Source: Planctomycetota bacterium (GTDB taxonomy: Bacteria; Planctomycetota; Phycisphaerae; SM23-33). From it: 32,604 bases of DNA. The notes under the pieces were generated by a model. It was not told the DNA's origin. It saw only the letters and a program-made list of their open reading frames with translations, and did no database searches. Both the position numbers and the translations under genes were made by a program. Positions 521 to 32,604 of this stretch are shown here, piece by piece (positions within the stretch are counted from its first letter, which is position 1; the number at the start of each line of letters is the position of its first letter). The stretch is from the NCBI GenBank assembly GCA_029553505.1, contig JAKPKY010000139.1, forward strand, positions 1 through 32,604. Direction: 5' to 3'.

Positions 521-523
521 CAA

Positions 524-615
524 AACGGAAAGCGGAAAACGAAAAGCTGAAATCAGAAAGTGCATTGCCTCAGTAGCGTAGTTTCAGCTTTCAGCGTTTC
601 GCTTTCAGCTTTGCT
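524..615. repeat. Inverted pair of heptad arrays between epimerase and sugar transferase
   Basis: The left array at 524-558 is five 7-bp units of the type AACGGAA / AGCTGAA. The right array at 581-615 is five 7-bp units of the type CTTTCAG, the reverse complement of the left consensus. The two arms could form an imperfect stem across a 22-bp spacer. No coding or promoter signal is obvious in this 173-bp gap. Confidence 0.75.
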
Positions 616-693
616 TTCGCCCCGCATTTCAGGAATCGGCGCCCTTGGCGCCAGCGCGACGCATGCCGGAGTTGAGCGCCCGGCGAGAAGAAG

Positions 694-9034: not shown

Positions 9035-9079
9035 ACATCGGCCGGCGGGTGTTCCGCAGGCCTGAAGTTTCTTTCTGTT

Positions 9080-9115
9080 CGCGGGTCGGCCCGGTAAGCC
9101 GGCCCGCGTTTTTTT
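9080..9115 (+). terminator. Rho-independent terminator
   Basis: An 11-bp GC-rich stem (CGCGGGTCGGC paired with GCCGGCCCGCG, one G-T pair) closes a 7-nt loop and is followed directly by seven T at 9109-9115. It lies 46 bp after the 71-residue gene. It is the clearest intrinsic terminator in the window. Confidence 0.88.
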
Positions 9116-9141
9116 GCGCCTCCAAAACCAGAAAATACCCG

Positions 9142-9278
9142 CCACAGAGGCACAGAGAACACCGAGAAGGCAGAAGAAATAATCGACGGATTGAAAGTCG
9201 CGAATCACGAGTCGCGACTCGAGGGTTGCATGGAATGATTTTCGCCTTTTCTTCTCCGCGTTCTCTGCGTCCTCTGCG
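9142..9278. repeat. Inverted pair of 9-bp-period arrays (copy 1) with a heptad array in the loop
   Basis: The left arm at 9142-9177 is degenerate 9-bp units of the type CACAGAGAA. The right arm at 9252-9278 is three 9-bp units of the type TTCTCTGCG, roughly its reverse complement. The loop holds four 7-bp units (type GAGTCGC) at 9195-9222. The same pair of arms recurs at 24568-24644. Apart from the terminator, the 339-bp gap 9035-9373 holds nothing else I can support. Confidence 0.75.
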
Positions 9279-9373
9279 GTGGGTGGTTTTTGGGAATTCG
9301 ACGAATCCGCCGCCTGTCGCTTGCCCGCCAGCTCGCGATGTCGATAATGGCCTGCTGCGAAAGGCACGCGCGC

Positions 9374-15327: not shown

Positions 15328-15409
15328 GGGTGGCACGGGCTGCTTGCAGCCCGTGTTCCCCTTGAATTGCAGGTGCGAGAACACGGCTTGCGAGCAAGCC
15401 GTGCCACCC
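15328..15409. repeat. Twin-hairpin element between gcvT and the sulfate-activation gene
   Basis: An 82-bp element bounded by GGGTGGCAC and its exact inverse GTGCCACCC. Inside are two perfect 10-bp hairpins: CACGGGCTGC with GCAGCCCGTG at 15334-15355, and CACGGCTTGC with GCAAGCCGTG at 15382-15403. The gap 15233-15536 is otherwise unremarkable and must contain the divergent promoters. The layout resembles REP-type paired palindromes. Confidence 0.85.
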
Positions 15410-22304: not shown

Positions 22305-22390
22305 GGCCCGGTGGCGGAATTGGCAGACGCAAGGGATTTAAAATCCCTTGTCCCGTAAGGGACGTGTGGGTTCGACCCCCGCCCGGGCCA
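22305..22390 (+). tRNA. tRNA-Leu (UAA anticodon)
   Basis: An 86-nt class II tRNA. The acceptor stem is GGCCCGG with CCGGGCC and discriminator A at 22390; CCA is not encoded. TGGCGGAATTGGCAGACGC is a leucine-type D region. The anticodon stem AGGGA/TCCCT closes the loop TTTAAAA with anticodon TAA, which reads UUA. A long variable arm (GTCCC...GGGAC) and a T arm with GGTTCGA follow. Confidence 0.97.
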
Positions 22391-23762: not shown

Positions 23763-23788
23763 GTCCGGATGCGTTTCTTCGCGCCTCG

Positions 23789-23862
23789 GGGTGCCACCCT
23801 CAAGCGCTGTTTGCTTGAGGGTGAATGCACGGACAAGCGTACAGCGCTTGTCCGTGGCACCC
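23789..23862. repeat. Twin-hairpin element, copy A (upstream of bioB)
   Basis: A 74-bp element with ends GGGTGCCAC and GTGGCACCC. Hairpin 1 at 23795-23823 has an 11-bp perfect stem (CACCCTCAAGC) and 7-nt loop. Hairpin 2 at 23828-23856 has an 11-bp perfect stem (CACGGACAAGC) and 7-nt loop. A competing fold pairs CAAGCGCTGT (23801-23810) with ACAGCGCTTG (23841-23850). A near copy lies at 31259-31332. It starts 26 bp before the bioB start codon. Confidence 0.88.
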
Positions 23863-23889
23863 GATTGCGGCGCCCGCCCTATCGGCGCG

Positions 23890-24940: not shown

Positions 24941-25127
24941 TAGGCTACAGGCTCCAGACCTCAGACTTCAGGCTTACTGGTCAATTGGTCAATCGGCCGA
25001 CTGGTCCTTCGGTTTTCAATCCGCAACTCTGCTCTGCGTAGCGAAGCGCTCCGCTTCGCAGAGCAGGGTCCGAAATCCGCAATCCGAAATTCTTCCGGGT
25101 TCCCTGTTCCCGGTTCCGGGTTCCTTC
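24941..25127. repeat. Composite heptad arrays and hairpin
   Basis: Eight 7-bp steps at 24941-24996 start as CAGGCTC / CAGACTT types and drift to others. A hairpin at 25029-25066 has a 10-bp outer stem (CTGCTCTGCG with CGCAGAGCAG). Three units of TCCGAAA type lie at 25069-25089 and five of TTCCGGG type at 25093-25127. The array ends 3 bp before the stop codon of the next minus-strand gene. No gene is visible in 24878-25130. Confidence 0.75.
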
Positions 25128-25130
25128 TTC

Positions 25131-25652: not shown

Positions 25653-25672
25653 GCAACCCCCTGCCGGAAAAT

Positions 25673-25757
25673 CGCGAATCGCGAATCTCGAATCGCGAAT
25701 GAAACGAACCCGCCCTTTCCGTCAGCCGACGGTAGGGTGCGTGGCGCAGCCACGCAC
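25673..25757. repeat. Heptad array and two hairpins after hisS
   Basis: Four 7-bp units (CGCGAAT, one variant CTCGAAT) occupy 25673-25700. Two perfect hairpins follow: CCGTC/GACGG at 25719-25732, and GTGCGTGGC/GCCACGCAC with a 3-nt loop at 25737-25757. The second begins 8 bp past the hisS stop, but no T-run follows on that strand, so it is not a standard terminator. Confidence 0.78.
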
Positions 25758-25764
25758 GCGGGCG

Positions 25765-31230: not shown

Positions 31231-31258
31231 CGCCGACGGGAAAAACACAAAAACCATC

Positions 31259-31332
31259 GGGTGCCACCCTCAAGCGATGTCTGCTTGAGGGTGTTCGCAC
31301 GGCCAAGCACACAACGCTTGGCCGTGGCACCC
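31259..31332. repeat. Twin-hairpin element, copy B (inside the hexuronate operon)
   Basis: A 74-bp near copy of the element at 23789-23862, with the same ends and the same length. The stems are CACCCTCAAGC (hairpin 1) and CACGGCCAAGC (hairpin 2), with 7-nt loops. The change of one base in the second stem (A to C) is matched by the compensating change on the other side. It lies in the 121-bp gap between uxaE and the SDR gene, so it would be transcribed. Confidence 0.88.
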
Positions 31333-31351
31333 ATGAAAGAAAAGGAAAACG

Positions 31352-32176
31352 ATGAGCGCACAGGACAAGCTGTTCGACGTTTCGGGCAAGCGCGTCGCCG
31401 TCACGGGCGGCGCGGGGATTCTCTGCGGGGAGATGGCCAAGGCGCTGGCGGCGCGCGGCGCGAAGGTCGCCCTGCTGGACTTCAACCTCGACGGCGCGAA
31501 AAAACTCGCCGACGAAATCCGCGCCGCCGGCGGGCAGGCCGTCGCCGTGCACTGCAACGTGCTGGAGAAGGACTCCGTCGAGAAGGCCTACCAGGAGACC
31601 GTCGGCGCCCTGGGCGGAGTGGACGTGCTCGTCAACGGCGCCGGGGGGAACAAGAAGGACGCCACCTGCGCGCCCCCCACCGCGTTCTTCGACCTGCCGG
31701 CCGACGCCATCCGATGGGTCTTCGACCTCAACTGCCTCGGCACCATCCTGCCCAGCCAGGTCTTCGGGCGGCACTTCGCCGAGAAATCCGCCGGCGTCAT
31801 CATCAACGTCTCGTCGATGAACGCCTTCCGCCCCCTGACGAACATCGCCGCCTATTCCGGCGCCAAGGCGGCCGTCAGCAACTTCACCCAGTGGCTGGCC
31901 GTCTACATGTGCCAGCGACATTCCACGAAAATCCGCGTCAACGCCATCGCCCCGGGGTTCTTCCTGACCGACCAGAACCGCTTCCTGCTGACCAACCCGG
32001 ACGGATCGGCCACCCCGCGCGGGAACACGATCATCACCCACACCCCCATGGGCCGCTACGGCGAGCCGGGCGAACTCGTCGGGGCGCTGGTCTGGCTGAT
32101 CTCCGACGCGGCGAAGTTCGTCACCGGGATCGTTGTCCCCATCGACGGCGGGTTCAGCGCGTTTTCGGGAGTGTAG
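31352..32176 (+). CDS. SDR-family oxidoreductase, probable D-mannonate oxidoreductase (fructuronate reductase)
   Basis: A 274-residue classical short-chain dehydrogenase. The cofactor site is VTGGAGILCGEMAKAL (GxxGIxG-like), and VNGAGGNKKD is the NNAG equivalent. The catalytic Ser is in IINVSSMNAF, and Tyr and Lys in AYSGAKAAV. IRVNAIAPGFFLTDQNR is typical of SDRs annotated as D-mannonate oxidoreductase in hexuronate loci. The reaction would be D-fructuronate + NAD(P)H to D-mannonate. Placement after uxaE supports that, as in Thermotoga. AAAAGGAAAACG precedes ATG 31352. Substrate is inferred from context, not proven. Confidence 0.9.
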   Translation: MSAQDKLFDVSGKRVAVTGGAGILCGEMAKALAARGAKVALLDFNLDGAKKLADEIRAAGGQAVAVHCNVLEKDSVEKAYQETVGALGGVDVLVNGAGGNKKDATCAPPTAFFDLPADAIRWVFDLNCLGTILPSQVFGRHFAEKSAGVIINVSSMNAFRPLTNIAAYSGAKAAVSNFTQWLAVYMCQRHSTKIRVNAIAPGFFLTDQNRFLLTNPDGSATPRGNTIITHTPMGRYGEPGELVGALVWLISDAAKFVTGIVVPIDGGFSAFSGV

Positions 32177-32413
32177 TGGATAGTGAAGAGTGGAGAGTGG
32201 TGAGTGGTGAGTGGAGAGAACGGAGCCCCGACCGTGAGGGAGGGGTCGCCGAAAGCTGCTGAGGGGAAAGGCCGAAGGGCGAAGGCCAAAGTAGAAAGCC
32301 GAAAACAAAGAATGCAGGGCGACCAGTGGTGAGTTCAGCGTGTTTATCCGCGTTTATCTGTGTTCATCCCTGCCGATTTTTAACCCATTGTCACTTGTCC
32401 CTTGTCCATTGAA
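32176..32413. repeat. Four consecutive short-period arrays
   Basis: Six 7-bp units of GTGGAGA type at 32176-32217 (starting at the SDR stop codon). Six 7-bp units of AAGGCCG type at 32268-32309. Three 10-bp units of GTTTATCTGT type at 32342-32371. Four 7-bp units of CTTGTCC-like type at 32386-32413. These make up most of the 252-bp gap between the SDR gene and the last gene; no other signal is seen there. Confidence 0.85.
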
Positions 32414-32428
32414 AATCAGGAGCGTGTG

Positions 32429-32604
32429 ATGTCGGAACATGTGGAAACATTGAAGGGTTTCGCGAAGACGAAGGACTTTTTCATCGGCATCGACTCGGAC
32501 GGATGCGCGTTCGACACGATGGAGATCAAGCACAAGGAGTGCTTCATCCCGAACATCATCAACTCCTGGGGCCTCCAGCCGGTCTCCAAGTTCGCGCGGG
32601 CGGC
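32429..32604 (+). CDS. HAD-superfamily hydrolase, 5' part only
   Basis: The gene runs off the window after about 58 residues. Motif I is FFIGIDSDGCAFDTME, with Asp22 as likely nucleophile and Asp24 as acid/base; the second Asp is followed by Gly-Cys as in phosphatase-like HADs. The cap domain begins at KHKECFIPNIINSWG. AGGAG lies 8 bp before ATG 32429; GTG codons at 32424 and 32426 are close but less well placed. It follows the SDR gene after the repeat-filled gap and may belong to the same hexuronate or sugar-acid cluster. Its substrate cannot be told from this fragment. Confidence 0.8.
   Translation, partial: MSEHVETLKGFAKTKDFFIGIDSDGCAFDTMEIKHKECFIPNIINSWGLQPVSKFARA

What the first reader, a model, noticed from the sequence alone, without database searches (positions are those of the whole stretch)
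524..615. Intergenic arrays with a fixed 7-bp period but a different unit at each locus
Seen: perfect 7-bp phasing with degenerate units at 524-558, 581-615, 9195-9222, 24941-24996, 25069-25089, 25093-25127, 25673-25700, 32176-32217, 32268-32309 and 32386-32413. The unit changes from place to place (AGCTGAA, GAGTCGC, TCCGAAA, TTCCGGG, CGCGAAT, GTGGAGA, AAGGCCG, CTTGTCC types), yet the period does not. All are in non-coding gaps. Heptanucleotide tandem repeats (STRR) are known in cyanobacteria, but there the unit is conserved. Here the constant thing is the step size, which points to a process that copies 7-nt steps (slippage by one polymerase, or a templated end-joining activity) rather than selection on sequence. 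This locus is the clearest, because its two arrays are mutual inverses.
Basis: partly seen in the sequence, partly recalled or inferred. Interest (0 to 1): 0.8.

Follow-up and report, generated by a model that had tools for sequence, protein, structure and literature searches.

The report
Heptamer-armed hairpins at gene ends
Many gaps between genes in this bacterium hold degenerate DNA words repeated every seven letters, often as mirror pairs just past gene ends; the words recur across the genome and can be swapped wholesale between close relatives, so they are likely a mobile hairpin element rather than the trace of one seven-step copying enzyme.

Summary
The 7-bp phasing is real. In 81.6 kb of non-coding DNA from this Planctomycetota MAG, 54 lag-7 arrays pass a threshold that dinucleotide shuffles pass 0.6 times on average. 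Units are not private to a locus: they recur across the genome. The period is not fixed: 8-, 9- and 10-bp arrays fill the same kind of gap, and one gap holds 7-mers here but a 9-mer hairpin in a congener about 93% identical.

The arrays have an anatomy. 22 of 62 have an inverted partner within 200 bp (7 a direct one). They cluster at gene 3' ends, are rare in divergent gaps, and keep a constant core with variable columns. Array density differs strongly between genomes, and one word, TCCG(A/C)AA, occurs in many phyla.

Heptamer bias, with a slippage explanation, is already in print; paired inverted tandem 7/8-mers were described in Geobacter metallireducens. I judge these REP/REPIN-like hairpin modules with tandem-repeat arms, possibly moved by Y1 transposases: Y1_Tnp is in 28 of 28 array-positive and 157 of 266 negative genomes. 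That is only correlation; Y1 genes lie no nearer to arrays than other genes do. Ku end-joining does not track the trait.

The parts
521..693 (.). gap between two + strand genes (epimerase/dehydratase 3' end and bacterial sugar transferase) holding an inverted pair of heptamer arrays
522..559 (+). degenerate heptamer array, AAAGC(G/T)G type, left arm, starting just after the stop codon at 518-520
   Evidence: TRF
581..615 (-). inverted partner array, TTTC(A/C)GC type, right arm
   Evidence: fold z -3.0
9143..9170 (+). 9-bp-period array (CCACAGAGG/CACAGAGAA type), left arm
   Evidence: read; fold z -6.18 with its partner
9195..9222 (+). weak heptamer array (GAGTCGC type) inside the 9-bp hairpin
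   Evidence: 14 of 21 lag-7 identities; below the scan threshold
9252..9283 (-). 9-bp-period array (TTCTCTGCG type), right arm
   Evidence: TRF (9252-9278)
24941..24975 (+). heptamer array, CAG(G/A)CTN type; retained in congener G294 with differences only in variable columns
24976..24996 (+). TGGTCAAT-type stretch (8-bp step in TRF); G294 has CAATTGA/CACTCAC heptamers here
25026..25069 (.). palindrome between heptamer arrays; also found on two non-orthologous G294 contigs (C83, C84)
25069..25089 (+). TCCG(A/C)AA array; the word found in many phyla
25093..25127 (+). TTCC(C/G)GG-type heptamer array
25670..25700 (+). AATC(G/T)CG heptamer array, same length in G294
32174..32218 (+). GTGGNGA heptamer array; the upstream gene's TAG stop codon (32174-32176) lies at its start
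32268..32309 (+). AAGGCCG-type heptamer array, absent from the G294 gap
32342..32369 (+). 10-bp-period array (GTTTATCCGC type)
   Evidence: TRF
32386..32413 (+). short CTTGTCC-type heptamer array ahead of the ATG at 32430
   Evidence: TRF (below scan threshold)

Best explanation
The arrays are degenerate tandem 7-mers (with 8-, 9- and 10-mer variants) that often stand in inverted pairs next to gene 3' ends, and they are likely the arms of a REP/REPIN-like family of intergenic hairpins that spread and replace one another between gaps, predicted to be moved as single-stranded hairpins by Y1 (HUH) transposases. Shown here: the phasing, reuse of words within the genome, inverted pairing of a third of arrays, 3'-end placement, constant core with variable columns in three retained arrays, replacement in some orthologous gaps, and large differences in array density between genomes. 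Inferred: movement as hairpins, the role of Y1 transposases, and that tandem duplication inside an arm sets the 7-nt step.
For: Inverted partner within 200 bp for 22 of 62 arrays, direct 7 of 62, random other neighbourhood 5.0. The same bias elsewhere: 35 v 11 of 77 (multi-phylum), 39 v 19 of 142 (viral contigs), weaker in G294 (6 v 3 of 31), and 10 v 2 of 22 in array-positive phylum genomes. Arrays lie within 10 bp of a gene 3' end 18 of 65 times (null 6.9, maximum 15 in 500), but not of a 5' end (7 of 49, null 5.6). Gaps holding arrays: tandem 30 of 111, convergent 7 of 35, divergent 2 of 36. Words are reused within the genome. Gap contents differ between G000 and G294: L036:14298 has other word families and L036:3644 has 7-mers against a 9-mer hairpin (read by eye). 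Density differs between genomes: 2 lag-7 arrays in 344,514 bp from 20 TCCG-negative genomes (1 of 20 stretches), 22 in 305,028 bp from 20 positive ones (8 of 20 stretches); 7 of the 22 hold no TCCG-like word. Y1_Tnp is present in 28 of 28 positive and 157 of 266 negative genomes (p = 1.4e-6; by family 15 of 15 v 54 of 78, p = 0.0096, counted by hand). A transposase family of nearly the same prevalence, DDE_Tnp_1, gives 22 of 28 v 165 of 266 (p = 0.10). In 40 relatives (four of them also in the phylum sample), 19 of 19 genomes positive by either word v 15 of 21 negative carry Y1_Tnp.
Against: Y1 genes are not flanked by arrays beyond background: in G000 5 of its 9 Y1_Tnp matches have an array (lags 7-10) within 900 bp, but so do 38 of 83 ordinary genes of 300-900 bp; in other genomes 0 of 17 Y1 genes checked, 15 of them in array-positive genomes. 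Most Y1-positive genomes of the phylum lack the test word (157 of 185). No clean empty site or target duplication was found: apparent insertions in G294 were scaffold N runs. Array-bearing stretches of L049 match other G294 places at only about 72-88% over 90-190 bp, unlike the separate REP-like hairpins (up to 99%), so recent whole-module copying is not shown. 40 of 62 arrays have no exact inverted partner nearby. Homogeneous arrays (147 of 236) fit plain slippage. 4 of 6 clean orthologous gaps with an array in either genome have arrays in both, as do two more window gaps, so turnover is not total. The Y1 correlation is not corrected for phylogeny beyond the family count, and CACTNNC positives with one or two hits may be chance, since the reversed control also gave hits in 4 of 40 genomes.
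Confidence: 0.33

Rival explanations
1. Polymerase slippage: short tandem repeats grow by 7-nt steps because about 7 nt of DNA contact the replicative polymerase; the arrays are neutral junk tolerated between genes.
For: Lag 7 is by far the commonest step. 147 of 236 TCCGNAA arrays are homogeneous. The mechanism is already proposed for heptameric repeats and is reported in PMC4692102 and PMC4679880; the original paper was not seen.
Against: Array density differs strongly between genomes of one phylum. Adjacent units in mixed TCCGNAA arrays are less alike than shuffled, and no more alike in three other families. Unit differences have a transition share of 0.394, like shuffled bases (0.383) and unlike substitutions between the congeners (0.50-0.52). 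Core columns are held while variable columns differ (1 of 64 v 8 of 29). Inverted pairing and 3'-end anchoring are not predicted. One gap carries 7-mers in one species and 9-mers in the other.
Confidence: 0.22
2. Paired protein-binding sites: each array is a row of binding sites for a nucleoid or regulatory protein, and the inverted pair lets two protein rows meet; the conserved core is the contacted part.
For: Constant core and free columns in three retained arrays; inverted pairs. Geobacter metallireducens paired tandem octamers and heptamers were read as putative IHF/HU-type global regulator sites (PMC2700814, passages).
Against: Many word families in one genome would need many proteins. 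Arrays are rare in divergent, promoter-bearing gaps and cluster at 3' ends. Whole families are replaced in some gaps between species about 93% identical.
Confidence: 0.2
3. Templated end-joining by Ku/LigD writes the repeats at repaired breaks.
For: Could in principle give both direct and inverted copies (inference).
Against: Ku in 2 of 28 positive and 35 of 266 negative genomes (p = 0.55); not found in G000, which is 73% complete.
Confidence: 0.03
4. A reverse transcriptase writes the repeats from an RNA template, in the manner of telomerase.
For: RVT_1 is somewhat commoner in positive genomes (21 of 28 v 138 of 266, p = 0.027).
Against: 7 of 28 positive genomes have no RVT_1 match. Many unrelated word families per genome would need many templates (inference).
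Confidence: 0.04
5. Assembly or amplification artefact.
For: Most source genomes are MAGs (record titles).
Against: The test word is present in one-contig assemblies (G088, G248) and in assemblies of 3 and 6 contigs (G122, G171), in a record titled as a complete chromosome (CP087563) and in the named strain Shewanella basaltis KCTC 22121; three orthologous arrays are retained in phase in two genomes.
Confidence: 0.01

Closest known systems
Paired tandem-repeat 'global regulator binding sites' of Geobacter metallireducens (2009, PMC2700814; passages seen)
   Same: Tandem octamers (GTTGCTYN), TCTCCGTS[Y] units and heptamers (MTYCTGA), in pairs on opposite strands, at variable distance for the first two classes, multicopy in one genome; a fourth set was noted as similar to multicopy sequences in many other genomes.
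   Different: A few classes in one species, read as possible IHF/HU sites; no genome-wide lag statistics, 3'-end anchoring, orthologous-gap turnover or cross-phylum survey in the passages seen.
Over-represented heptameric simple sequence repeats in bacteria (2007 work, as reported in PMC4692102 and PMC4679880; the original was not seen)
   Same: 7 nt is the commonest long-SSR step; slippage linked to polymerase contact length.
   Different: Here the arrays are degenerate, with a constant core and free columns, often in inverted pairs; 8-10-mers share the niche.
GGGAATC / GGGGA(T/C)T heptamer repeats of Xanthomonas and Nostoc (PMC4692102; passages and Discussion)
   Same: Partly heterogeneous heptamers, intergenic, under-represented between divergent genes, some inverted.
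   Different: The paper treats one G-rich word type and its G-quadruplexes; most words here are not G-tract repeats.
TAACTGA direct repeats (Beggiatoaceae, Cyanobacteria, Bacteroidetes; PMC4679880; abstract and passages)
   Same: Intergenic heptamer arrays, patchy across phyla, origin unknown.
   Different: One fixed word, mostly just upstream of start codons, 169 direct sets and one indirect; here many degenerate words near stop codons.
REPIN / REP sequences with RAYT (Y1) transposases (PMC3116915; only the listing and start of abstract seen, the rest recalled)
   Same: Inverted doublets forming hairpins in gaps, dispersed within a genome; Y1 transposase present in every array-positive genome tested.
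   Different: Arms are tandem heptamers rather than a single REP; near-identical copies were not seen; Y1 genes are not flanked by them beyond background. REP-like hairpins also occur in this genome as separate families.

Membership tests
Cyanobacterial STRR (recalled, plus one passage in PMC4692102) | tandem heptanucleotides in non-coding DNA | tested here: met
Cyanobacterial STRR (recalled, plus one passage in PMC4692102) | a few fixed units per genome | tested here: not met
   216 distinct heptamer necklaces in 62 arrays, counting every 7-base window, so hybrids of two variants too; arrays drift between families in one 7-nt frame, e.g. L050:16072-16162
Heptameric long SSR | excess of 7-nt step over other steps in intergenic DNA | tested here: met
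   lag 7 = 54, shuffles 0.6; other lags that are not multiples of 3 or 7: 0-9
Heptameric long SSR | neighbouring units alike through slippage | tested here: inconclusive
   147 of 236 TCCGNAA arrays homogeneous, but adjacent identity depleted in the 89 mixed ones and as shuffled in three other families
Geobacter-type paired tandem sites | tandem 7/8-mers in inverted pairs | tested here: met
   met for a part of the arrays: 22 of 62, 35 of 77 multi-phylum, 6 of 31 in G294
Geobacter-type paired tandem sites | bound by an IHF/HU-like protein | not testable with these tools
   putative in the source paper too
REPIN/REP element | inverted doublet able to form a hairpin | tested here: met
   (fold z median -2.35 in 23 array gaps v -0.70 in 60 others, p = 0.027)
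REPIN/REP element | Y1 (RAYT) transposase in the genome | tested here: met
   28 of 28 and 19 of 19 positive genomes; 9 matches in G000; RAYT subfamily not resolved
REPIN/REP element | transposase gene flanked by the element | tested here: not met
   5 of 9 in G000 against a background of 38 of 83 genes; 0 of 17 in other genomes
REPIN/REP element | near-identical dispersed copies | tested here: not met
   array-bearing regions of L049 match other G294 places at about 72-88%, while REP-like hairpins reach 99%; not searched genome-wide
TAACTGA repeats | fixed TAACTGA unit just upstream of start codons | tested here: not met
   commonest words differ and placement is at 3' ends; TAACTGA itself was not searched for

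The most novel reading that the evidence does not exclude
A widespread, previously unrecognised class of mobile intergenic hairpin whose arms are written in short tandem words: a genome either runs the system or does not, each lineage has its own dialect, one word (TCCG(A/C)AA) is common to many phyla, and a Y1 transposase is the writer that keeps replacing one word set by another at gene ends.
Probability: 0.14. Interest if true: 0.85.

Novelty: new variant of a known kind. Interest (0 to 1): 0.57.

Why it matters
Heptameric repeats in bacterial gaps have been noted before and put down to slippage. The anatomy found here (inverted pairing, 3'-end anchoring, constant core with free columns, replacement including a change of period, strong differences between genomes) gives features that slippage alone does not predict, and makes the question testable: find the gene whose presence or loss switches the trait. 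If a Y1 transposase or another writer is responsible, much of the DNA between genes of many uncultured bacteria would be mobile-element sequence that is now unannotated.

Tried and rejected
1. Insertion with target duplication: BLAST of G000 against G294 showed steps of about +130-150 bp with 10-19 bp overlaps; these are runs of N at scaffold joins with repeated flanks. Rejected.

2. Universal vocabulary: with TCCG-like words removed, G000+G294 words are not shared with the multi-phylum set (cosine 0.155, null 0.184) nor with other positive genomes of the phylum (0.021, null 0.080); the pairs with viral contigs exceeded the null (0.301 v 0.259, 7 of 300 permutations as high; multi-phylum x viral 0.285 v 0.212, 1 of 300). 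With TCCG words kept, five of six pairs exceeded the null. Only the TCCG family, which was itself the search word, is shown across phyla.

3. Ku end-joining and reverse transcriptase as writers: disfavoured.

4. Y1 genes flanked by arrays: not beyond background.

5. Arrays as intrinsic terminators: in the L036:14298 convergent gap a separate T-tailed hairpin is conserved in both species while the arrays beside it are replaced (read by eye). Rejected for that gap only.

6. The first gene finder picked antisense frames; it was replaced by one seeded with Pfam-supported genes. Counts are not used.

7. One gap counted as 'array in G294 only' (L036:7951) lies in an apparent gene of G294 and is probably not an array. 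20 of 39 gaps were dropped for lack of a clean ortholog.

8. The first count of retained arrays (10 of 31 variable sites, 1 of 64 core) included two sites past the end of one array in G294; one search drops them (8 of 29).

9. Known RNA families: only a tRNA in the window.

Full report
WHAT IS IN THE WINDOW. The window is contig C243 of a 2.51 Mb, 264-contig, 73% complete genome. The phylum is taken to be Planctomycetota: G171, placed in the same phylum, has a first contig of 2,757,459 bases, the length of a record titled Planctomycetota bacterium isolate FR_30. All ten cited places show lag-7 phasing, and seven of ten are recovered without prior knowledge. They lie in five gaps: 521-693, 9035-9289, 24941-25130, 25653-25764 and 32177-32401, with small overlaps at the ends of the last one. 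Two of the gaps also carry a 9- or 10-bp array. The clearest pair, 524-558/581-615, forms a hairpin, as does the 9-bp pair around 9143-9283.

IS IT MORE THAN CHANCE. In the window plus 20 stretches of the genome (426 kb, 19.5% non-coding by a codon model seeded with Pfam-supported genes), lag-7 segments of score >=12 number 54 in 81.6 kb of gaps. The mean of five dinucleotide shuffles is 0.6; coding DNA scaled to the same length gives 3.3. Lags 5, 8, 10, 11 and 13 give 2, 9, 3, 2 and 1; lag 14 gives 29 as an overtone. 37 of 197 non-coding segments hold at least one array. The plain average autocorrelation at lag 7 is hardly raised (0.277 non-coding, 0.262 coding), so the signal is in local arrays. 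The 20 stretches were not random: several contigs were known to hold the TCCG word.

THE UNITS ARE A REUSED VOCABULARY. TCCGNAA three times in a row (<=1 mismatch) is found 41 times in the genome; the reversed control never. Three and a half repeats of CACTNNC (<=1 mismatch) are found 74 times, the reversed control twice. Outside the TCCG family, 50 pairs of the 29 G000 arrays share a heptamer, against 15.7 when the seven unit columns are permuted within each array. Some arrays pass from one word to another in the 7-nt frame (L036:13099-13201, L050:16072-16162).

ANATOMY. Of 62 non-coding arrays, 22 have an exact inverted 9-mer partner within 200 bp, 7 a direct one, and 5.0 would match a random other neighbourhood. 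Arrays sit within 10 bp of a gene 3' end in 18 of 65 cases (null 6.9; maximum 15 of 500 placements), while 5' ends show no excess (7 of 49, null 5.6). Divergent gaps are poor in arrays (2 of 36, against 30 of 111 tandem and 7 of 35 convergent). Array gaps fold more stably than other gaps against dinucleotide shuffles (median z -2.35, n = 23, v -0.70, n = 60; p = 0.027), but many non-array gaps carry other strong hairpins. A self-comparison of 167 gaps shows the recurring layout array, spacer, inverted array; read by eye, periods of 8 (L034:17007), 9 (L041:9820, L046:7111) and 10 occur beside 7.

EVOLUTION BETWEEN CONGENERS. G294 is in the same genus; aligned DNA differs at 6.4% of coding and 8.4% of non-coding sites (2,283 of 35,744 and 424 of 5,029). 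Of 39 gaps tested, 19 had a clean ortholog: 13 without arrays, 4 with arrays in both, 1 in G000 only and 1 in G294 only, the last probably a miscount inside a gene. Two further window gaps have arrays in both. In three arrays retained at the same length, 8 of 29 sites in columns that vary within the G000 array differ, against 1 of 64 in constant columns (p = 6e-4); 7 of the 8 changes are to a base already seen in that column. Lag-7 mismatches inside arrays have a transition share of 0.394 (164 of 416), like shuffled bases (0.383) and unlike substitutions between the two genomes (0.50-0.52). Other gaps are rewritten: at L036:14298 one set of words stands in place of another, and at L036:3644 the G000 gap is nearly all 7-mers where G294 has a 9-mer hairpin.

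BEYOND THE GENUS. TCCGNAA x3 exact is in 28 of 294 genomes of the phylum (25 of 210 genera); the reversed pattern is in 1 of 294. In 236 such arrays on hand the free base is A 487, C 470, T 55, G 19. In the 80 loci (13 of them from one Acidobacteria MAG), outside the searched arrays, lag 7 again dominates and inverted partners outnumber direct ones 35 to 11 of 77; for the searched arrays themselves 28 to 11 of 80. One stretch each from 20 of the 28 positive genomes gave 22 lag-7 arrays in 305,028 bp (8 of 20 stretches, 8 of the arrays in one of them; 7 of the 22 without any TCCG-like word); from 20 of the 266 negative genomes, 2 in 344,514 bp, both in one stretch. Array carriage thus differs between genomes, though positives were chosen by one of the words. 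With TCCG-like words removed, the words of this genus are not shared with other phyla above chance: dialects are lineage-specific. Contigs classed as viral carry arrays too, not examined further.

WHICH GENE GOES WITH IT. On the same 294 genomes: Ku 2 of 28 positive v 35 of 266 negative; Y1_Tnp 28 of 28 v 157 of 266; RVT_1 21 of 28 v 138 of 266; DDE_Tnp_1, of nearly the same overall prevalence as Y1_Tnp (187 and 185 of 294), 22 of 28 v 165 of 266. Fisher p: 0.55, 1.4e-6, 0.027, 0.10, for four families tried. Collapsed by family, Y1_Tnp is 15 of 15 v 54 of 78, p = 0.0096 (hand count). In the 40 relatives, 19 of 19 genomes positive by either word carry Y1_Tnp against 15 of 21 negative ones. Against a direct role: 5 of 9 Y1 matches of G000 have an array within 900 bp, no more than ordinary genes (38 of 83), and 0 of 17 in other genomes do. 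The correlation may only mark genomes or lineages that tolerate intergenic repeats.

HOW IT MOST LIKELY WORKS. The arms of an inverted pair can fold when single-stranded. Such hairpins are what Y1 (HUH) transposases act on in REP/REPIN and IS200/IS605 systems (recalled knowledge). I propose that hairpin modules with tandem-word arms are copied into gaps just past stop codons, where they do least harm, that arms lengthen or shorten by whole words, and that older modules are overwritten by new ones. Placement, pairing, reuse and replacement in some gaps are shown; movement, enzyme and cause of the step are inferred.

WHAT IS ALREADY KNOWN. Over-representation of heptameric repeats and the polymerase-contact idea are in print (as reported in PMC4692102 and PMC4679880). 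Paired inverted tandem octamers and heptamers are described for Geobacter metallireducens as putative regulator sites (PMC2700814, passages). REPINs are recalled as inverted doublets (PMC3116915, listing and start of abstract only). A text search for six such words found four papers, none on bacterial repeats by their titles, and the listings showed no other paper that describes this combined anatomy by title or abstract start; the library holds open-licence papers only.

Noticed in passing
window 31258-31333 and about 23780-23870: REP-like double-hairpin element (GGGTGCCACCCTCAAGC...GGCACCC); the 31258 copy has 12 relatives at 82-91% identity over most of its length in G294, and the family is among the deepest repeats in gap self-comparison.
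   Followed up: partly
window 15328-15409; L036:14313-14423; L049:14683-14816: Related palindromic repeats built on GGTGGCACGGCTTGC...GCAAGCCGTG with dozens of matches in G294, some 98-99% identical to the L049 copy: a recently active REP-like family, possibly the main substrate of the Y1 transposases (not tested).
   Followed up: partly
L118 and L161 (G294 contigs): Runs of N in G294 contigs are flanked by duplicated contig ends and mimic insertions with target duplications.
   Followed up: yes
L489 (G314:C6:50500-63500): Two 468-bp Y1_Tnp genes, each with one or two heptamer arrays within about 200 bp; looked at because a TCCG array lay near, so no test.
   Followed up: partly
L036:3644 v G294 C65: The two congeners end this gene differently; in G000 the stop codon lies within the heptamer array, as if the array had overwritten the 3' end (read by eye).
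   Followed up: partly
L291-L370 (IMG/VR pieces): TCCGNAA arrays and other lag-7 arrays occur in contigs classed as viral; whether these are phages, proviruses or misclassified host DNA was not checked.
   Followed up: no
window 22305-22390: tRNA gene on the + strand, the only Rfam match at gathering threshold in the window.
   Followed up: no
236 TCCGNAA arrays across genomes: The free base is A or C about equally and rarely T or G, with a two-unit alternation in mixed arrays (distance-2 identity 97 of 186, null 83.9, reached by 6 of 500 shuffles). No explanation.
   Followed up: no
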